From Deltaproteobacteria bacterium (GTDB lineage: Bacteria; Desulfobacterota; Desulfuromonadia; Desulfuromonadales; BM103): 31,984 bases of DNA. Shown piece by piece: positions 8,655-26,761 of the stretch. The stretch is from NCBI GenBank assembly GCA_024636215.1, contig JAGXHL010000036.1, positions 1 to 31,984 on the forward strand. The letters are read 5' to 3'. Under the pieces are notes generated by a model that ran no database searches, was not told where the DNA came from, and saw only the letters and a list, made by a program, of their open reading frames with translations. Position numbers and translations under genes: made by a program. Each line of letters starts with the position of its first letter. Position 1 is the first letter of the stretch.

Positions 8655-9869
8655 GTGGACAGACCACATGTGCTGATCATTGAAGACGATGCCAATGTCT
8701 GTGAACTTCTGTTCTCTTGTCTGCGTAAGGACGCATATCGGGTTTCTGCTGCTCAAAGCGGTGAAGCAGGTTTGCTGGAAATCGAAGAAGACATGCCGGA
8801 CGTTGTCGTGCTTGACCTCAACCTGCCCGGGATGAATGGTCTGGACGTTTGTCGCACCATGCGTCAGGACCCCTGGATGAGCAAAATTCCTGTGCTGATG
8901 TTGACAGGGATGGCTGATGAAGAAGATGTCGTTGCTGGACTTGAAGTCGGTGCCGATGATTACATGACGAAACCATTTTCACCGAAGCTCTTGGGCGCCC
9001 GTGTCAAAGCTTTGCTGCGCCGAGGCAACCGCCGGCAAGGGATGACATCCCTTGTAGAGAAAGTTGATAAAACAGACAGTTCCCCGGATATCCTTATGGT
9101 GAAAACCCTGGGGAAATGCGAGTTGCAAATTGCTGATCGTCATTTGTCGTGGATAGAAGAATTCAGTCCCGCGCAGCGTCAACTCATGTCAATACTGGTA
9201 GGCACCCCCACAGGAAAGATTTCTCAAGAAGAGATTCAGGTGGCGCTCTGGCCGGACAGTTCTCCCTCGCGAGCGCGGTCTAGCTTTGATTCTCTTCTGT
9301 CGCGCGTACGTCGTACTCTTGATCAGGCTTTCAAGCCATTCGACAGTAAAAAATACCTGGTGGTCAAGCGTGGATATCTCTGTCTGGAGAACTCCCGGAT
9401 TGACGCGCATGAGTTCTGTCGCTTGATCCATAAAGGTTCCCAGCAATTTGCTCACCGTGAATTCTGGCCGGCCGAAATCTCCTTTTCCTCGGCGTTCAGT
9501 CTCTGGCAAGGGACCTTTGTGCCAGGGAATTTCGGTAGTGATGCAGCGATTGTCTTCCAGGATGAACTGGAGCAGCTTTACCTCGAAACCAGCCTGACTT
9601 TTGCCCGTTTACTTTCCGAAAGCAAGCGTTACCAGCAGGCAGACAAACTTTTACGTGATGCCTTGCGATATGATCCTACCAACGACGATGTTATCCGTTT
9701 GCTCTATCAGTTGTGTATTGTTCAGAACCGGTCGGGACAAGCCAGCCATCTGCTGAAGCAATATAGTGAAGCTTTGGGCAAAGATAATTACACAGCGCAG
9801 GAGATTCACGAGGTGCTACTCCATATCTCGAAGGTCAAGCCTGAGCAGGGATGGCTTGTCGCCGACTGA
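8655..9869 (+). CDS. response regulator with SARP-type winged-helix and BTAD output domains
   Basis: 404-residue two-component transcription regulator. The receiver domain (4-123) has the acidic pair D11/D12, phospho-acceptor D54, T84 and K106. Residues about 150-245 look like the SARP/OmpR winged helix (VALWPDSSPSRARSSF...SLLSRVRRTLD, then KKYLVVKRGYLCL). Residues 255-385 are helical, TPR-like and fit a bacterial transcriptional activator domain. The GTG start at 8655 is fixed by AGGAGG 8 nt upstream. It is the last gene of the rluD-pgeF run; no histidine kinase is adjacent. SARP proteins bind heptamer direct repeats of 11-bp period, and such repeats occur directly behind this gene at 9921 and 10103. 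The link is inferred. Confidence 0.9.
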   Translation: MDRPHVLIIEDDANVCELLFSCLRKDAYRVSAAQSGEAGLLEIEEDMPDVVVLDLNLPGMNGLDVCRTMRQDPWMSKIPVLMLTGMADEEDVVAGLEVGADDYMTKPFSPKLLGARVKALLRRGNRRQGMTSLVEKVDKTDSSPDILMVKTLGKCELQIADRHLSWIEEFSPAQRQLMSILVGTPTGKISQEEIQVALWPDSSPSRARSSFDSLLSRVRRTLDQAFKPFDSKKYLVVKRGYLCLENSRIDAHEFCRLIHKGSQQFAHREFWPAEISFSSAFSLWQGTFVPGNFGSDAAIVFQDELEQLYLETSLTFARLLSESKRYQQADKLLRDALRYDPTNDDVIRLLYQLCIVQNRSGQASHLLKQYSEALGKDNYTAQEIHEVLLHISKVKPEQGWLVAD

Positions 9870-9920: not shown

Positions 9921-9954
9921 TTGTGAGAAAATTGTGAGTACCGGTGAGTATAAT
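9921..9954 (+). promoter_or_regulatory. promoter P1 with 11-bp-period heptamer repeats
   Basis: TTGTGAG (9921-9927), 4 nt, TTGTGAG (9932-9938), 4 nt, GGTGAG (9943-9948), directly followed by TATAAT (9949-9954). No -35 box stands at the normal spacing, so an activator is likely to be needed. CTCACAA at 9956-9962 also makes an inverted repeat with the second heptamer. An AT-rich stretch (9881-9915) lies upstream. The layout matches known SARP-dependent promoters. Confidence 0.5.
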
Positions 9955-9960
9955 GCTCAC

Positions 9961-10061
9961 AAAAATCGCTTGTGTTTGCAGGCTTGAAGATTGAAACAAG
10001 AGAGGGTATGCAATTAGATTAAAAGGGGGCCCCCATCAGATGGATGGGGGCCAATTTTTTT
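9961..10061 (+). ncRNA. candidate small RNA 1 (about 100 nt)
   Basis: Predicted transcript from promoter P1 to the terminator at 10028-10061. No credible coding sequence is present; the only ATG (10008) opens a four-codon frame. The region 9870-10219 holds no other gene. An alternative is that this is only the 3' trailer and terminator of the response regulator mRNA. Confidence 0.4.
10028..10061 (+). terminator. intrinsic terminator T1
   Basis: Perfect 10-bp stem GGCCCCCATC/GATGGGGGCC (10028-10037, 10043-10052), 5-nt loop, followed by AATTTTTTT. Strong on the plus strand; it could also work weakly on the minus strand. Confidence 0.88.
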
Positions 10062-10102
10062 AATTGCAGATAAACATGATATCTTTTGTCTTCTGACGGT
10101 GG

Positions 10103-10137
10103 TTGTAAGATATTTTTGAGAAGTGGTGTGGTATAAG
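10103..10137 (+). promoter_or_regulatory. promoter P2, same architecture as P1
   Basis: TTGTAAG (10103-10109), 4 nt, TTTTGAG (10114-10120), 4 nt, GGTGTGG (10125-10131), directly followed by TATAAG (10132-10137). Each block differs from its P1 counterpart by one or two bases (the third also by one base in length), and the spacing is otherwise the same. No -35 consensus at 16-18 nt. Confidence 0.45.
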
Positions 10138-10143
10138 TTCAAT

Positions 10144-10210
10144 CAGGATTAATTTCCTACCTCCGATTCAAGAACAAGGCCCGGGTCATCGACCCGGGCC
10201 TTGTTCTTTG
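10144..10210 (+). ncRNA. candidate small RNA 2 (about 67 nt) with anti-Shine-Dalgarno-like motif
   Basis: Predicted transcript from P2 to the very strong terminator T2. The unpaired 5' part contains CCTACCTCC (10156-10164), complementary to ribosome binding sites, before the 17-bp terminator stem. No open reading frame of note. Existence and role are inferred from promoter and terminator layout only. Confidence 0.4.
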
Positions 10211-10219: not shown

Positions 10220-10354
10220 TCAGGTTATGGCGCGCAGCACTACGGCGAGCAAGCCTGAGGTGGAATCTGAGTACTCCCTCAATGTTCTCAATATCGCCTT
10301 CGACTTTAGCCTGAACAAGGTCGATATTGGTTCTAATCTTTTTGTTCCGACCAT
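10220..10354 (-). CDS. possible 44-residue ORF coupled to the hydrolase gene
   Basis: The hydrolase stop and this ATG share a base (TGATG at 10356-10352), with GAGG 7 nt before the ATG, which is a classical coupling layout. The product, MVGTKRLEPISTLFRLKSK..., is basic and resembles nothing I know. Other frames are also open here (a plus-strand ORF 10227-10370, and a minus frame without a start codon), so coding on this strand is uncertain. Confidence 0.22.
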   Translation of the reverse strand: MVGTKRLEPISTLFRLKSKAILRTLREYSDSTSGLLAVVLRAIT

Positions 10355-11223
10355 CAGTCCACCTCTGTAGTAAATCCGGTCCATCGGGCGATTGCCTCCA
10401 TCAGGGTTTGCCGGTAAATCTCTCCACCCACGATAAAGCCATTGTTGTGCCCGGCACCGGGAATCCATAAAATATGTTTTTCCTCTGGTGCCCTGTAAAA
10501 AAGCTCTTCTGCCATGCGTGGCGGGCAGATGCTGTCCTTTTTGCCATGAATGAGCAGAAGAGGACACTTCAGTCCGCTAATTTTTTCCAGGTTGTCGTAC
10601 TTGGCACCAACCAGCCAGCCGAGCAAGCGATTAATCAGCGGATAGTGATACTGACCCATGGCAGCGATCGAGGTAAAGGCTGATTCCATGATCAGGCCGG
10701 CCGGAGGGGAGTGCAGTGCGGCTTCGAGACCGATCGCGGCACCCAGCGAGCGACCGAAGATGATCGTCTGTTCTGATGTCCAGCCGCGGTTACTCAATAA
10801 TTCCAAAGCACCGGCGATATCCTGATAGGTCCCCCTCTCGCTGGCTTTGCCCTCGCTGAGACCGTAGCCACGGTAATTGAAGATGAAGACGGCAACCCCC
10901 AAATCGTGGAGCAATTGCAAGGTATCCAGACGATGGGAGATGTTGCCGGCGTTGCCCATGCAGAAGAGCACGACCGGAGCATTTTCCCGCCCCGGAACAA
11001 GCCAGCCGTTAAGCCGGGTGCCGTCAGTTGCCCAGAAAGCAATCTCTTCGTAATCCAGGTTTATGCTTGTCGGTGTTGCTTCATGACGAGGCTCGGGGAA
11101 GTAAAGAAAGTGGTGGTCGAGGGCGGCGCGAGCAGGCATGGCAAAGATCACTGCCGCCACCAGATAGACGAGCAAACGGTAATGCAACTTTTTGAATCCG
11201 GAAACTTTGGACATGAGAGACAT
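10354..11223 (-). CDS. alpha/beta hydrolase, secreted or membrane-anchored
   Basis: 289-residue serine hydrolase of the alpha/beta fold (BEM46/YsgA-like group). Residues 12-32 form a hydrophobic N-terminal segment ending near ARA, which is either a signal peptide or a membrane anchor, so it acts outside the cytoplasm. The oxyanion segment is CMGNAGN (88-94). The catalytic triad is S159 (GRSLGA), D230 (HGKKDS) and H259 (GAGHNN). The start is one of two nearby ATGs (11223 or 11214). It begins 7 bp after the trkH stop and is presumably co-transcribed with trkA-trkH. The substrate is unknown; no link to potassium transport is evident beyond position. Confidence 0.88.
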   Translation of the reverse strand: MSLMSKVSGFKKLHYRLLVYLVAAVIFAMPARAALDHHFLYFPEPRHEATPTSINLDYEEIAFWATDGTRLNGWLVPGRENAPVVLFCMGNAGNISHRLDTLQLLHDLGVAVFIFNYRGYGLSEGKASERGTYQDIAGALELLSNRGWTSEQTIIFGRSLGAAIGLEAALHSPPAGLIMESAFTSIAAMGQYHYPLINRLLGWLVGAKYDNLEKISGLKCPLLLIHGKKDSICPPRMAEELFYRAPEEKHILWIPGAGHNNGFIVGGEIYRQTLMEAIARWTGFTTEVD

Positions 11224-11230
11224 CGAAGTG

Positions 11231-12673
11231 TCATTTTCGCCAGAAGCTCGGGAAAACCAGAACCAGTACGGTAAAGAGTTCCAGACGTCCTAACAGCATG
11301 CAGAATGCAAGCACCAGTTTACCGAACGCCGGGACATGCGCGAAGTTGTCGACAGGTCCGACCGAGCCGAGTCCCGGACCGATATTACTCAGGGTGGCGA
11401 TGACCGAGGCGCCTGCCGAAGGGAGATCCATACCGACACCTGCCATAATGAAGGAGGCGGCAACAAACACACCCAGATAGAGTGCGAAGAAGCCGAGAAT
11501 CGACTGCATGACTTCTTTATCCACCGGCCGTGCGCCGAGCTTGACCAGGCGTACAGCACGGGGATGAATCAGACGGAAGACCTGCACGTGAGCATGCTTG
11601 AACAGGAGCAGGATGCGGGCGACCTTCATGCCGCCCCCGGTGGATCCTGCGCAACCACCGATGAACATGGCAAACACCAGCAGATACTGGCAGAGGACCG
11701 GCCAGAGTTCATAGTCGGCCGTGGCGAAGCCGGTGGTGGTCATGATCGATACGACCTGGAAGGCGCTGAAACGCAGATTGTCGAGAAAATCGGGATAAGT
11801 GCCGCCCATGTTGAGCAAGGTAATCGAGATCGTGCCGAACAGAATCAGACCGAAGTAAAAGCGCAGTTCCTCGTTGCGAATAAAATCGCCGATCTTGCCC
11901 TGCAGGGCAAGATAATGCAGGGAAAAATTAATCCCGGCCAGAAACATGAACAAGGTAATGACCCATTCGATATAGGCACTGCCGTAGGCTGCAATCGAAG
12001 CGTTGCGGGTTGAAAACCCGCCGGTGGCCATAGTGGTGAAGGAATGGTTCAGGCCATCGAAAAAATTCATGCCGCCAGCCATCAGCAACAAAACTTCAGC
12101 GCCGGTGAGCAGGACGTAAACTCCCCAGAGCAGCTTGGCTGTATCCTGAATACGTGGTTTCAGCCGGTCAGTGGTCGGGCCGGGCACCTCGGCTTTGAAT
12201 AACTGCATACCACCGACACCGAGCATCGGCAGGATGGCGAGGGAGAGGACGATGATGCCCATGCCACCCAGCCATTGTGTCAGAGAGCGCCACAGCAGAA
12301 TGCTTGGCGGCAGTACCTCGATATCGGTAAGAATGGTCGAGCCGGTGGTGGTGAAGCCGCTCATGGTCTCAAAAAAAGCATCGAGGTATGAGGGGATTGC
12401 TCCGGACAAAACAAACGGCAGCGCCCCAAACAGGGAAAAAAGAGTCCAGCCGAACGTGACGACGGCAAAGCCTTCACGGACAGACAGGTCGCTTTCAGAG
12501 CGAAACAGCTTGAAAAGCAGTCCGCCGCATGCTGCAGAAATAACCGAAGAAAGAATAAAGGAGCTCGCAGCACCGTCGCCGTAAAACCAGGAAAACGGCA
12601 CAGGAAAGAGCAGGGCAATCGCCAAGGACAGCAGCAAGGCGCCGAGTATGCGCAAAGTCAGCGTGATATTCAT
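11231..12673 (-). CDS. trkH: Trk potassium uptake system, membrane subunit
   Basis: 480-residue TrkH/KtrB-type potassium channel-like transporter in the inner membrane. It has the four-fold pore repeats of the SKT family, visible as SGFTTTGSTIL, MATGGFSTRN, MTTTGFATADYE and TLSNIGPGLGS, each with the selectivity-filter glycine, and multiple hydrophobic helices throughout. The length is right for TrkH. The start codon touches the trkA stop directly (TAGATG), so the two subunits are co-translated. TrkA gates this subunit by binding NAD(H) or nucleotides. Confidence 0.96.
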   Translation of the reverse strand: MNITLTLRILGALLLSLAIALLFPVPFSWFYGDGAASSFILSSVISAACGGLLFKLFRSESDLSVREGFAVVTFGWTLFSLFGALPFVLSGAIPSYLDAFFETMSGFTTTGSTILTDIEVLPPSILLWRSLTQWLGGMGIIVLSLAILPMLGVGGMQLFKAEVPGPTTDRLKPRIQDTAKLLWGVYVLLTGAEVLLLMAGGMNFFDGLNHSFTTMATGGFSTRNASIAAYGSAYIEWVITLFMFLAGINFSLHYLALQGKIGDFIRNEELRFYFGLILFGTISITLLNMGGTYPDFLDNLRFSAFQVVSIMTTTGFATADYELWPVLCQYLLVFAMFIGGCAGSTGGGMKVARILLLFKHAHVQVFRLIHPRAVRLVKLGARPVDKEVMQSILGFFALYLGVFVAASFIMAGVGMDLPSAGASVIATLSNIGPGLGSVGPVDNFAHVPAFGKLVLAFCMLLGRLELFTVLVLVFPSFWRK

Positions 12674-14026
12674 CTATTCGAAGAATCTTTCGACTTTGGC
12701 AAGTGCTTCTGGTAGAGCAAAGACCATCACCAGGTCGCCTACCTTGATACAAGTCTCGCCGTCGGGAATTTCATAACTGTTCTGGTGAACAATGGCACCG
12801 ATAATCGCTCCGCGCGGGAAGTGCAGATCCTTGAGCGGGGTATCGACAATTGAACTGCCGGATTTGATTTCAATCTCCAGAACTTCCGAATTGCTGCCTT
12901 CGATCGTCGCCAGGGAGATTACATTGCCGCGGCGGGCGAACTTCAGGATCGCACTAGCCGCAGAAAGTCGTGGCGAGACACAAGCGTCAACACCAAGAGA
13001 ATGGGCCAAATCGATAAATTCAGGTCGGTTGACCAGACTAAGGGTCCGTTTGGTTCCGTGGCGTTTGCAGAGAAGCGAGCAGAGGATGTTGGTCTCGTCG
13101 TTATCGGTTGCGGCGATGAAAACATCAGCATTGGCCACGCCTTCATCGAGCAGAACCCGGATGTCGGTGCCCTCGGCGTGAATGATCATGGTTTTTTTCA
13201 ATTGTGCCGAAAGTTTTTCGCAACGGGCCTGATCGCGTTCTATCAGGCGCACATTGAAGCCGCGCTCCTCGAGATTGCGGGCGACCCGCAGGCCAATCCG
13301 GCCGCCACCGAGAATAAAGGCTCGTCGGGATCCCCGACGCTTCTCTTCCTTGACCTTCAGCAGGTACTGAATGGCAGGCAGATCTTGCTTGTGGGCAAAG
13401 ATGAAGATGCTGTCGCCAACCTGTATGGTATCGTCGCCACGAGGAATGATGGTGTGGCCGTGCCGTGTGATTGCGACCACGACGAAGCGATACATGCCGC
13501 GAATTTCACCAAGCTCTTTAAGGGTCAGATCACACAACGGACTGTCTTCGTTAATGCGATAACCGAGAAACTGGATCTGGCCGCCGACGAACTCGGCAAC
13601 ATCGAAAGTCCCGGCCCTGGCAGCGAGGTTGGCCAGTTCGTCAGCTACGGCATCGTCCGGATTGATCATCAGGTCGATGCCCAGTTTATCTTTGGAGAGA
13701 ACAGCGCCCCGGCTCAGGTAGTCAATACTCTTGACACGGGCGATGCGTTTGCCGACGCCATATTCCCGCGCCAGCAGGCAAACCAGAATATTGACCTCAT
13801 CAAGATCAGTGACGGCCATGACAATATCCGCCTCCTTGATGCCGGCCTGTTCCATGGTCTCGGCGCTGGCGCCGTTGCCAAGGATGCCGAGCACATTGAG
13901 ACGATCCTGGGCGGCATTGAGATGGTCCTGATTACGGTCGATCAGGGTGACTCCATGACCTTCCAGAGAGAGCCGTTCGCAGAGAAAGTAGCCGACTTGA
14001 CCCGCTCCGACTATGAGTATGTTCAT
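12674..14026 (-). CDS. trkA: Trk potassium uptake system, regulatory NAD-binding subunit
   Basis: 450-residue cytoplasmic TrkA with two tandem RCK (KTN) units. The first Rossmann motif is ILIVGAGQVGYFL (3-15); the second starts near residue 233 with AFILGGGRIGLRVA. Each is followed by a RCK_C domain (about 140-220 and 365-450; e.g. GDSIFIFA and GDLVMVFA). It regulates TrkH, encoded immediately downstream with no gap. The ATG at 14026 has an AGGGAA element upstream. A long plus-strand open frame over the same DNA is an antisense shadow. Confidence 0.96.
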   Translation of the reverse strand: MNILIVGAGQVGYFLCERLSLEGHGVTLIDRNQDHLNAAQDRLNVLGILGNGASAETMEQAGIKEADIVMAVTDLDEVNILVCLLAREYGVGKRIARVKSIDYLSRGAVLSKDKLGIDLMINPDDAVADELANLAARAGTFDVAEFVGGQIQFLGYRINEDSPLCDLTLKELGEIRGMYRFVVVAITRHGHTIIPRGDDTIQVGDSIFIFAHKQDLPAIQYLLKVKEEKRRGSRRAFILGGGRIGLRVARNLEERGFNVRLIERDQARCEKLSAQLKKTMIIHAEGTDIRVLLDEGVANADVFIAATDNDETNILCSLLCKRHGTKRTLSLVNRPEFIDLAHSLGVDACVSPRLSAASAILKFARRGNVISLATIEGSNSEVLEIEIKSGSSIVDTPLKDLHFPRGAIIGAIVHQNSYEIPDGETCIKVGDLVMVFALPEALAKVERFFE

Positions 14027-24587: not shown

Positions 24588-25508
24588 ATGTATGAAGAAC
24601 ATTTCAAGTTACGGGAAGCTCCCTTCTCGCTGACGCCAGATCCCGATTATTTTTACAATTATATCGGTCATCAACAGGCTTTGAATGTTCTGCTGGTTGC
24701 TTTGCAGAGCGGTGAAGGCCTGATCAAGATAACCGGTGAAGTCGGGACGGGCAAGACCCTGCTCTGTCGTAAACTGCTTGCCGCTCTGACTAATGATTTC
24801 CAGACTGCATATCTGCCCAATCCTCTCCTGAAACCATTTGAGCTTTATCAGGCTCTTGCCGAAGAGTTGGGCATTGTCATCCCCATTGGTATTACCATGC
24901 ATGATCTGGTGAAACGTATTACCGGACAATTAGTTGAGCTGCGCCAGAAGAACAAAAAAGTCGTGCTTTGTATTGATGAAGCACAAGCTATGCCGAAAGA
25001 CACCCTGGAAGCGTTACGTCTGTTCAGTAATCTGGAGACTGAAAAACACAAACTGCTGCAAATTGTTATCTTCGCACAGCCAGAGTTGAACACAATGCTC
25101 GAACGCAGCGACCTGCGACAACTGCGCCAGAGGATAACATTCAGTTACGACCTGCCTGCATTAGATCGCGAAGCCATTACCGGTTATGTCAAACACCGCC
25201 TGAGGGTGGCCGGTCATGAAGATGGTAAATTGTTTGACGCCGCCGCGCTGGATGCCGTATACCGCTCCAGCCGCGGAATCCCGCGGCTGGTCAATATCCT
25301 GTGTCACAAAGCCTTGATGGTCACTTACGGTCAGGGACGGTCCATGGTTGATCTGTCACAGGTGAGGATGGCCAGTCGCGACACCGAGGACGCAACGCAA
25401 ATTTCCCGCTCACTATTGGTCGGCAAGTCATTCAGCTTAACAGTCGGCATCATTACTCTGCTGGAAATTGTTCTGATCATTTACTTGTTGCGGAGTGTTT
25501 TGTCATGA
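24588..25508 (+). CDS. mshM: ExeA/MshM-type AAA ATPase with C-terminal membrane segment
   Basis: 306 residues. The family opening MYEEHFKLREAPFSLTPDPDYFY is shared by ExeA/GspA and MSHA pilus protein MshM. Walker A is GEVGTGKT (50-57), Walker B VVLCIDE (125-131), and the C-terminal lid carries SSRGIPRLVN. Residues 281-303 form a membrane helix. ATPases of this family help assemble type II secretion or MSHA-type pilus machinery at the inner membrane. It lacks the peptidoglycan-binding domain of longer ExeA proteins. The ATG overlap (ATGA, 25505-25508) couples it to the mshN-like gene. The exact pilus or secretion system is not visible in the window. Confidence 0.85.
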   Translation: MYEEHFKLREAPFSLTPDPDYFYNYIGHQQALNVLLVALQSGEGLIKITGEVGTGKTLLCRKLLAALTNDFQTAYLPNPLLKPFELYQALAEELGIVIPIGITMHDLVKRITGQLVELRQKNKKVVLCIDEAQAMPKDTLEALRLFSNLETEKHKLLQIVIFAQPELNTMLERSDLRQLRQRITFSYDLPALDREAITGYVKHRLRVAGHEDGKLFDAAALDAVYRSSRGIPRLVNILCHKALMVTYGQGRSMVDLSQVRMASRDTEDATQISRSLLVGKSFSLTVGIITLLEIVLIIYLLRSVLS

Positions 25509-26761
25509 GTCTGATTAACCAGATGCTACGTGATCTGCAGCAGCAAAATAAGAATGGCGGCACCACCAAACCGGATCGCCTGGGCCACAAAAACAAGGGT
25601 CGTCTTGCTTGCCTGCCCCTGCCGCTGGTTCTGGGCGGTGCCGCATTGCTTCTGCTCTGTCTTATCTGGTGGTCGGCTGGAGCTCTGTCGGACATGATGT
25701 ATGGTTCCGAACCGCTGGTTAAGCCTGAGACATTTCAAAAAGTTGTTGCAGCCGAGCAGCCGTCAACCACAGAAATTGTTGTGGCTATTGCGGAGCCTGA
25801 CCAGCTGACCATGACAGAGCGCGAGGCTGAGCCGCCAGCTTTGCCAGTTATGGACACTCATCCTGCGGCTGTCAATACACAACCAGTGCCTAAAATACTT
25901 ACTGACAAAGTACCCGATGTACAGCCGGTTGCCGTTAATCCGTTGCCCATCGTTGCCAATTCTTCCGTTTCAGCCGTGGCCATCCGCAAGCAGGTGACAG
26001 AGCCAGCTACTGTGACCAAAACATCACAAACAGTTCAGAAACGCCCAGCGCAGATCCCTACCAGGGCCATCGCCACCTCTGCAAAGCAGCTGCATCCTGA
26101 TGATTTACCCGGTGCTGTTCTGAGTAGCCGCCACAGGCTGGTTGAAACCAGAAGCGCCGAGAGGCCATCCAGTACCCTGGCGATGACACCATATGGCATG
26201 GCGGAAGAAGCTTATGTCGATGGTAAAAAGGCTTTTGCTCACGAGCGTAGCAGTCTCGCTGAAGGATCATTGCAGCAGGCGTTGCAATTTTATCCTGGCC
26301 ATCTCCCGGCCAGAGAACTGCTGGTCGAAATATTCGGCAAGCAAGGGAAGTCCGGAGAAGCGATGCTTCTCCTGGCGGAAGGACTCGAGATTGCCCCCGA
26401 CTATATGGCATTCAAAAAAAAATATACCCGGCTGTTGATGGATAAGGGTGATTATGATGCGGCAGCCAAGGTCATGCTGAACGTCGGGTTACCGACAGTC
26501 GAAGACGATCCGGAAGCCCATGTGATTCTGGCTTCATTATATCAGCGTCTCGGCGAGCCATTCCTTGCTGCTCAGACATATCGCAATCTGCTGATTGCAT
26601 GGCCACAGACCGGCGCTTTTTGGGTCGGACTCGGGAGTGCTCTGGAAGGTCAAAATCTTTTCCAGGAAGCAGCAGTGTGTTACCAGAGAGCCCTTAAAAC
26701 CATGGATTTACGCCAGGATTTGAATCATTACGCTGAAGAACGGCTGAGTTTGCTCAATTAG
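25505..26761 (+). CDS. mshN: MshN-like membrane-anchored TPR protein
   Basis: 418 residues. The start MSLINQMLRDLQQQ is the typical MshN/GspB-like cytoplasmic N-terminus. One membrane helix at about 37-60 follows. Residues 70-220 are a Pro/Val/Thr/Ala-rich spacer expected in the periplasm. From about 225 to the end there are tetratricopeptide-type helices (EAYVDGKKAFAHERSSLAEG, then AHVILASLYQRLGEPFLAAQTY). It is translationally coupled to the MshM-like ATPase, the order known from MSHA loci. The rest of an MSHA cluster (mshE, mshG, mshL, pilins) is absent here, so the pair probably serves a pilus or secretion system encoded elsewhere. Confidence 0.8.
   Translation: MSLINQMLRDLQQQNKNGGTTKPDRLGHKNKGRLACLPLPLVLGGAALLLLCLIWWSAGALSDMMYGSEPLVKPETFQKVVAAEQPSTTEIVVAIAEPDQLTMTEREAEPPALPVMDTHPAAVNTQPVPKILTDKVPDVQPVAVNPLPIVANSSVSAVAIRKQVTEPATVTKTSQTVQKRPAQIPTRAIATSAKQLHPDDLPGAVLSSRHRLVETRSAERPSSTLAMTPYGMAEEAYVDGKKAFAHERSSLAEGSLQQALQFYPGHLPARELLVEIFGKQGKSGEAMLLLAEGLEIAPDYMAFKKKYTRLLMDKGDYDAAAKVMLNVGLPTVEDDPEAHVILASLYQRLGEPFLAAQTYRNLLIAWPQTGAFWVGLGSALEGQNLFQEAAVCYQRALKTMDLRQDLNHYAEERLSLLN

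What the first reader, a model, noticed from the sequence alone, without database searches (positions are those of the whole stretch)
9921..10137. Two matching promoters with 11-bp-period heptamer repeats directly behind a SARP-type response regulator gene
P1 reads TTGTGAG, 4 nt, TTGTGAG, 4 nt, GGTGAG, TATAAT. P2, 180 bp further, reads TTGTAAG, 4 nt, TTTTGAG, 4 nt, GGTGTGG, TATAAG. Spacing agrees to within one base and neither has a -35 box at normal distance. SARP regulators are known to bind heptamer direct repeats with 11-bp period immediately upstream of the -10. The gene just upstream (8655-9869) is a receiver-SARP-BTAD protein. I infer a local regulator-target module. An alternative for P1 is a dyad site, since CTCACAA (9956-9962) mirrors TTGTGAG.
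Basis: partly seen in the sequence, partly recalled or inferred. Interest (0 to 1): 0.75.

Follow-up and report, generated by a model that had tools for sequence, protein, structure and literature searches.

The report
Response regulator with two adjacent sRNAs
Directly behind a bacterial switch gene lie two probable small-RNA genes whose promoters carry the paired DNA tags that this kind of switch is expected to bind, and the same tags mark surface and signalling genes in related sediment bacteria.

Summary
The two heptamer promoters are real and conserved. Each is followed by an intrinsic terminator 65-100 nt downstream, so they look like two tandem small-RNA genes (sRNA1 about 9961-10060, sRNA2 about 10144-10210) that match no Rfam family at threshold. 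Across the window and 16 relatives, heptamer 1, heptamer 2 and the -10 are 90, 98 and 93% identical against 50% upstream. With a start at 9961 the two 11-bp units lie at -40..-30 and -29..-19, the geometry published for the AfsR (SARP) box. Sites with at most 2 mismatches occur in 18 of 21 genomes with an ortholog of the 8655-9869 regulator and in 0 of 115 others of the order; but the 21 look like one clade. Sites also precede a kinase operon, PilZ/GGDEF and polysaccharide genes and c-di-GMP-I riboswitches. Distant BTAD regulators often carry similar repeats right behind their own genes (8 of 19; 5 of 16 without the three picked on sight). Transcription and binding are inferred. The dyad alternative is not conserved. 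Closest known protein by architecture: GSU1771, a receiver-SARP regulator of electron transfer in Geobacter. Cytochrome mRNAs as sRNA2 targets are a weak lead.

The parts
8655..9869 (+). Response regulator: receiver, weak OmpR-type winged helix, BTAD/TPR (SARP-like), 404 aa
   Evidence: Pfam Response_reg 101.9 bits and BTAD 31.4 above cut-off, Trans_reg_C 19.8 below its cut-off 26.2; model and EmbR fold match
9921..9927 (+). P1 heptamer 1 (TTGTGAG)
   Evidence: 90% identity in 17 rows
9932..9938 (+). P1 heptamer 2 (TTGTGAG)
   Evidence: 98% identity in 17 rows
9949..9954 (+). P1 -10 (TATAAT); start inferred near 9961
   Evidence: 93% identity; geometry
9961..10060 (+). sRNA1 (ends inferred)
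   Evidence: Alignment of 18, model R1 hits
9967..9985 (+). sRNA1 conserved core CGCTTGTGTTTGCAGGCTT
   Evidence: 88% mean identity; TTGCAGGC invariant in 18 rows
10028..10060 (+). sRNA1 terminator
   Evidence: covariation only modest
10103..10109 (+). P2 heptamer 1 (TTGTAAG)
10114..10120 (+). P2 heptamer 2 (TTTTGAG)
10132..10137 (+). P2 -10 (TATAAG); start inferred near 10144
10144..10210 (+). sRNA2 (ends inferred)
   Evidence: Alignment of 10, covariation, model R2 hits
10145..10158 (+). sRNA2 hairpin AGGA/UCCU
   Evidence: 92.5% of cells paired, changes on both sides at one of four pairs
10159..10164 (+). sRNA2 ACCUCC, anti-Shine-Dalgarno-like
   Evidence: CCUCC intact in 10 of 13 copies, degenerate in G005, G006, G007
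10170..10208 (+). sRNA2 terminator stem-loop
10354..14026 (-). Hydrolase (10354-11223), TrkH (11231-12673), TrkA (12674-14026): conserved neighbours on the far side

Best explanation
The intergenic region holds two small-RNA genes. Each promoter lacks a -35 and has instead a pair of 11-bp-spaced heptamers ending 10-11 nt before the -10. Most likely the phosphorylated receiver-SARP protein encoded just upstream binds the heptamers as a side-by-side dimer and holds RNA polymerase in place of a -35, as AfsR does. sRNA1 (about 100 nt, UUUGCAGGC core near its 5' end) and sRNA2 (about 65 nt, CCUCC motif beside a hairpin) would then act on mRNAs. The same regulator would switch on a regulon: a small protein plus histidine kinase, PilZ and GGDEF proteins, surface polysaccharide genes and c-di-GMP-I riboswitch leaders. 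Shown by sequence comparison: promoter-terminator units, their conservation, genome-wide sites. Inferred: transcription, binding, identity of the regulator, function of the RNAs.
For: Conservation of heptamers and -10. Terminators and conserved RNAs. sRNA1 model: 18 genomes at E<1e-5, all with the regulator ortholog (17 of these 18 had supplied rows). sRNA2 model: 12 genomes over 50 bits, all with the ortholog, 3 of them new. Sites with at most 2 mismatches in 18 of 21 ortholog genomes, 0 of 115 others. A pattern one base shorter gave 0 sites in 19 genomes at up to 2 mismatches. 67 of 68 other sites lie outside ORFs of 200 aa or more against 39.9% of random positions. Distant BTAD genes: 8 of 19 have the same architecture behind the stop codon, 0.07 expected; three of the 8 (L180-L182) were fetched because a hit had been seen there, leaving 5 of 16. 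AfsR geometry.
Against: No transcription or binding data. The ortholog genomes look like one clade (TrkA 80-92% identical in the 15 with a full-length match, best other 75%), so any clade-specific regulator would co-occur. G021 has the regulator (55%) but no such RNA behind it and only one 3-mismatch site. L017, with a 47% homolog, has no site. sRNA1-like RNAs with TTGTCAG promoters exist in genomes without the ortholog, so the RNA's place near trkH does not depend on this gene. sRNA1's terminator shows only modest covariation, with as many two-sided pairs when slid.
Confidence: 0.7

Rival explanations
1. The heptamers are sites of another OmpR-family response regulator (for instance PhoB, whose box is also an 11-bp direct repeat; recalled), and the neighbouring SARP gene is incidental.
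For: PhoB-type sites look alike (recalled, no call); the TTGTCAG variant of other clades resembles a pho box; co-occurrence with the SARP gene is confounded by one clade.
Against: Distant BTAD genes carry the same repeats behind them; none of the 20 downstream proteins scanned was a phosphate-transport gene, though ORFs were picked mechanically and most sites were not scanned.
Confidence: 0.18
2. P1 and P2 make no functional RNAs: the short transcripts are by-products of regulated promoters or of insulation between convergent genes.
For: No expression data; sRNA1 shows structure conservation only in its terminator; CCUCC is degenerate in 3 of 13 sRNA2 copies.
Against: The core 9967-9985 is 88% identical across 17 rows; sRNA2 shows compensatory changes at 13 of 20 pairs; the downstream genes differ between relatives while the RNAs stay.
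Confidence: 0.1
3. P1 is a dyad operator (TTGTGAG...CTCACAA).
For: The dyad exists in the window.
Against: Exact in 0 of 16 relatives, 6/7 in 4; no such dyad noted at P2.
Confidence: 0.02

Closest known systems
GSU1771 of Geobacter sulfurreducens (SARP family; PMC10599522, PMC12325454, PMC7962754, passages seen)
   Same: Receiver, winged helix and activator domain; a related group of bacteria; effects on exopolysaccharide, biofilm and cytochromes
   Different: Orthology not tested (no Geobacter sequence examined); no heptamer site or sRNA appeared in the passages seen
AfsR and its afs box, Streptomyces (PMC10936776, passages seen)
   Same: Two 11-bp direct repeats, centre at -29.5, upstream repeat -40 to -30; BTAD domain
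   Different: AfsR has no receiver and has NOD/TPR parts; 3' repeat generally given as 8 bp from the -10, here 10-11 nt after the 7-mer; other heptamer
OmrA/OmrB-like tandem sRNAs under a response regulator (recalled; listing only)
   Same: Two neighbouring sRNA genes thought to be controlled by an OmpR-type response regulator
   Different: Here the two RNAs are unlike each other and sit beside the regulator gene
Alphaproteobacterial sRNAs ar35 (RF02346) and mmgR/suhB (RF00519)
   Same: sRNA2 region scores weakly: 29.6 and 17.3 bits
   Different: Below gathering scores 45 and 41; other class of bacteria

Membership tests
SARP regulator and its operator | OmpR-type winged helix plus BTAD | tested here: met
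   BTAD above cut-off; Trans_reg_C below its cut-off; EmbR 2ff4_A matches 266 columns, TMq 0.51; EmbR and AfsR weak by sequence, E 0.014 and 0.022
SARP regulator and its operator | DNA-binding domain at the N terminus, no receiver | tested here: not met
   Receiver at residues 6-117; this is the GSU1771 layout
SARP regulator and its operator | Heptameric direct repeats with 11-bp period near the -10 | tested here: met
   spacing to the -10 is 10-11 nt, not the quoted 8 bp
SARP regulator and its operator | The protein binds these repeats and activates | not testable with these tools
   No experiment
GSU1771-type regulator | Receiver, winged helix, activator domain in one protein | tested here: met
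   description of GSU1771
GSU1771-type regulator | Orthology with GSU1771 | not tested
   No Geobacter sulfurreducens sequence was at hand
Known Rfam RNA family | Score at or above the gathering threshold | tested here: not met
   0 matches in the window; best sub-threshold
Terminator-ended small RNA gene | Own promoter, no conserved ORF, intrinsic terminator | tested here: met
   both alignments have indels that break any frame (read by eye)
Terminator-ended small RNA gene | Transcript observed | not testable with these tools
   No RNA data

The most novel reading that the evidence does not exclude
Receiver-SARP proteins of electron-transferring Desulfuromonadales reach part of their targets through two dedicated sRNAs: the activated SARP makes sRNA2, which covers GGAGGUAGGAAA Shine-Dalgarno sites of secreted c-type cytochromes. 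This would explain how an activator of the sigma-adaptation type, such as GSU1771, can lower cytochrome levels, and would join it with cyclic-dinucleotide riboswitches in one regulon.
Probability: 0.12. Interest if true: 0.85.

Novelty: new variant of a known kind. Interest (0 to 1): 0.62.

Why it matters
It offers a testable binding site and regulon for a SARP-type regulator outside actinobacteria, in a group known for extracellular electron transfer, and adds two small-RNA families with promoters and, for sRNA2, a supported structure. If the link holds, the biofilm and cytochrome effects reported for the similar GSU1771 get a concrete route to test. The heptamer difference between lineages (TTGTGAG here, TTGTCAG elsewhere) gives a natural series for regulator-site co-evolution.

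Tried and rejected
Dyad site at P1: not conserved. The first regulon pattern had one N too few and gave 0 hits in 19 genomes; I keep it as a spacing control. sRNA1 targets: the complement of its core gave, apart from the sRNA1 loci, only 2-mismatch hits; the genes there were not examined. sRNA2 targets: GGAGGYAGGA-N1-9-ATG gave 27 hits in 18 ortholog genomes, 2 of them antisense to sRNA2; of the other 25, 20 open an ORF of 60 aa or more and 8 of these hold CxxCH (with N1-4: 18 hits, 16 ORFs, 8). Against it: 3 of the 8 are in G009 and G012, where the model found no strong sRNA2, and G005's sRNA2 motif is degenerate; the same cytochrome gene has the same site in G129 and G130, which lack the ortholog. 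Controls: R variant, N1-4, same 18 genomes, 0 of 5 ORFs; Y variant in genomes without the ortholog 3 of 27 ORFs among 40 loci (20 chosen by the tool, 20 picked by me from the list, mostly the T form; 4 loci of ortholog genomes left out). Fisher p = 0.035. Kept only as a lead. A regular expression for sites found none, not even known ones, so only its gene positions are used. Many weak R2 hits (110 of 136 genomes at E up to 0.01) and weak R1 hits I read as chance hairpins and terminators; this was not tested further. The second protein search (with L021's regulator) gave no named Geobacter entry among the 120 listed.

Full report
What is there. The window resembles uncultured Desulfuromonadales: in L001 (Desulfuromonadales MAG37) the regulator is 82% and TrkA 92% identical. 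Between a 404-aa response regulator (8655-9869) and a convergent alpha/beta hydrolase (10354-11223, minus strand) lie 484 nt. Rfam has no match at its thresholds in the window.

Conservation. One genome-contig scan with an alignment of 26 regulator homologs returned 79 loci (the best 80 of 504 were kept); L001-L018 carry relatives of 47-82% identity (L013 as a fragment), L019 a 59% fragment, L020 and L021 distant homologs, and the rest mostly receiver or receiver-plus-helix matches. I read the stretch behind the gene in 19 loci: 16 (L001-L012, L014-L016, L018) have P1 and the RNA (L010 ends inside it), and L017, L020 and L021 do not. In the alignment of the window and these 16, the commonest base reaches on average 90% in heptamer 1, 98% in heptamer 2, 93% in the -10, 88% in 9967-9985, 66% in 9986-10027, 78% in the terminator and 50% in 38 nt upstream. 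CTCACAA is exact in none of the 16.

The two RNAs. sRNA1: 18 sequences aligned (L010 left out, L202 and L210 added), TTGCAGGC invariant; the only consensus helix is the terminator, with modest covariation: the score beats 500 of 500 shuffles, but the number of pair types does not (393 of 500 reach it) and slid versions show as many two-sided pairs. sRNA2: 10 sequences, a 4-bp hairpin, then ACCUCC or a variant, then a 16-bp stem; 13 of 20 pairs change on both sides, covariation 0.539 against 0.286 in shuffles (0 of 500 reach it) and at most 0.201 when slid. Folded alone, sRNA1 has z -2.5 and sRNA2 z -9.1.

Models in the order (136 genomes). R1 at E<1e-5: 18 genomes, one copy each, plus a partial second copy in G003; all 18 have the regulator ortholog, and 17 of them had supplied rows (the other, G010, is the truncated one), so this speaks for single copy and exclusivity more than discovery. 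R2 over 50 bits: 12 genomes, all with the ortholog; 9 had supplied rows and G003, G005, G007 are new. In those three, sRNA2 lies near TrkA on another contig than sRNA1, so sRNA2 goes with the hydrolase/Trk side. All 13 sRNA2 copies, the window included, have a heptamer pair before them, imperfect in G005 and G006. CCUCC is intact in 10 of 13 and degenerate in G005, G006 and G007. In L002 the sRNA2 unit is duplicated in tandem.

Regulon. TGTGAG-N4-TTGTGAG-N8-TGTATA with up to 3 mismatches hits 16 of 19 genomes; the three without have only distant homologs. In the order I counted as orthologs matches of at least 55% identity: 21 of 136 genomes, two of them fragments (G024, G026); several full-length homologs of 26-35% were not counted. 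Sites with at most 2 mismatches: 18 of 21 (not G021, G024, G026) against 0 of 115. With up to 3 mismatches: 86 sites in the 21 (6 for the backward pattern), 40 in the 115 (11 backward); the 40 include TTGTCAG, TTTTGAG and TGTAAG variants. Of 68 distinct sites not followed by the sRNA1 core, 67 lie outside ORFs of 200 aa or more, against 39.9% of random 31-mers in these loci. A GSU3473-like 64-aa gene follows in 11 of 21 genomes, and behind it an ORF of about 318 aa in 10 (in G009 the contig ends); I scanned two of these ORFs (histidine-kinase ATPase in both, HisKA in L084) and one 64-aa protein (GSU3473_fam, 51.6 bits, cut-off 40). Of 20 proteins scanned in Pfam, picked mechanically as long ORFs within about 550 nt, others are receiver-PilZ (2), PilZ (1), GGDEF (2), receiver only (2), kinases (2), Poly_export, Polysacc_synt_2 and Capsule_synth (1 each), DUF6178, DUF2846 and Gp49-like, and 2 without a match. 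I gave 38 of 69 loci to Rfam: nine sites have a c-di-GMP-I aptamer directly downstream (L097, L123, L128, L132, L135, L137, L141, L142, L200). That the kinase is the regulator's partner is a guess.

Wider family. In genomes without the ortholog many BTAD matches lie near the C end of ORFs of about 1000 aa. I fetched 20 regions and dropped L183, a receiver-only match. In 8 of the other 19 the pattern TGTNAG-N5-TGTNAG-N10-TA-N3-T occurs within 300 nt behind the stop codon with at most 2 of 13 positions off; 0.07 were expected. L180, L181 and L182 were fetched because one search had shown a hit there; without them it is 5 of 16. In G053, G055, G058, G060, G062, G067 and G080 a TTGTCAG-type promoter is followed by a short stretch ending in GGAGGGGGG plus a terminator-like hairpin; trkH was found beside it in 6 of 7 (not G062) and yfiH in 6 of 7 (not G080). 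It resembles sRNA1 in place and end, not in its core; common descent is only a suggestion.

Mechanism. AfsR binds a 22-bp box of two 11-bp repeats centred at -29.5, the upstream one at -40 to -30, and sits under sigma region 4 in place of a -35 contact (PMC10936776, passages). If P1 starts at 9961, the repeats here lie at -40 to -30 and -29 to -19; P2 is one base further up. The protein has the domains. Its predicted structure (mean pLDDT 84.8; the other four models 64-71) matches receiver-OmpR proteins and, over 266 columns, EmbR; EmbR and AfsR are also among the weak sequence matches. I take activation by the neighbouring regulator as most likely; phosphorylation, binding and sRNA action are inferred.

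Known relatives. GSU1771 of Geobacter sulfurreducens has a receiver, a winged helix and an activator domain; its deletion changes cytochrome, exopolysaccharide and biofilm genes, it binds several promoters, and it is described as activator of its own gene (PMC10599522, PMC12325454, PMC7962754; passages only). Searches for BTAD + response regulator + Geobacter, Desulfuromonadales + sRNA, Geobacter + SARP, Geobacter + noncoding RNA + start sites, and GSU1771 listed no title or abstract start that reports these heptamers or RNAs; I read passages of three of the papers, and the library lacks most subscription journals.

Verdict. The main weaknesses are that there is no experiment and that regulator and sites co-occur within what looks like one clade.

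Noticed in passing
L109:44-1437 and like places in L084, L106, L107, L108, L117, L121, L124, L203, L212 (L096: first gene only): A GSU3473-like 64-aa gene followed by a membrane histidine-kinase-like ORF of about 318 aa, behind a heptamer promoter; a candidate partner operon of the regulator.
   Followed up: partly
L002:6517-6570: The sRNA2 unit (hairpin plus CCTCC) is duplicated in tandem.
   Followed up: no
L252 and L265 (G003 contig 13): A promoterless 3' half of sRNA1 followed by P2 and sRNA2, on another contig than the regulator: the locus seems to have been split.
   Followed up: partly
L218, L254, L280, L282, L285, L287, L288, L253: In genomes without the regulator ortholog, a TTGTCAG-type heptamer promoter and a short terminator-ended stretch between yfiH and trkH (one neighbour missing in L253 and L288).
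   Followed up: partly
L250 (2327-2462), L251: TTGTCAG-type promoter followed by a terminator about 65-100 nt on, away from yfiH and trkH (G089, G092): a further possible sRNA.
   Followed up: no
L296, L304, L307, L311, L314, L373, L376, L377: A tetraheme cytochrome family with near-identical Shine-Dalgarno site GGAGGTAGGAAA/G before ATG, complementary to sRNA2, also in genomes without sRNA2.
   Followed up: partly
window 24588-26761: XrtA/PEP-CTERM-like ATPase (229 bits, below the model cut-off 324.5) and a TPR protein; no heptamer site nearby.
   Followed up: no
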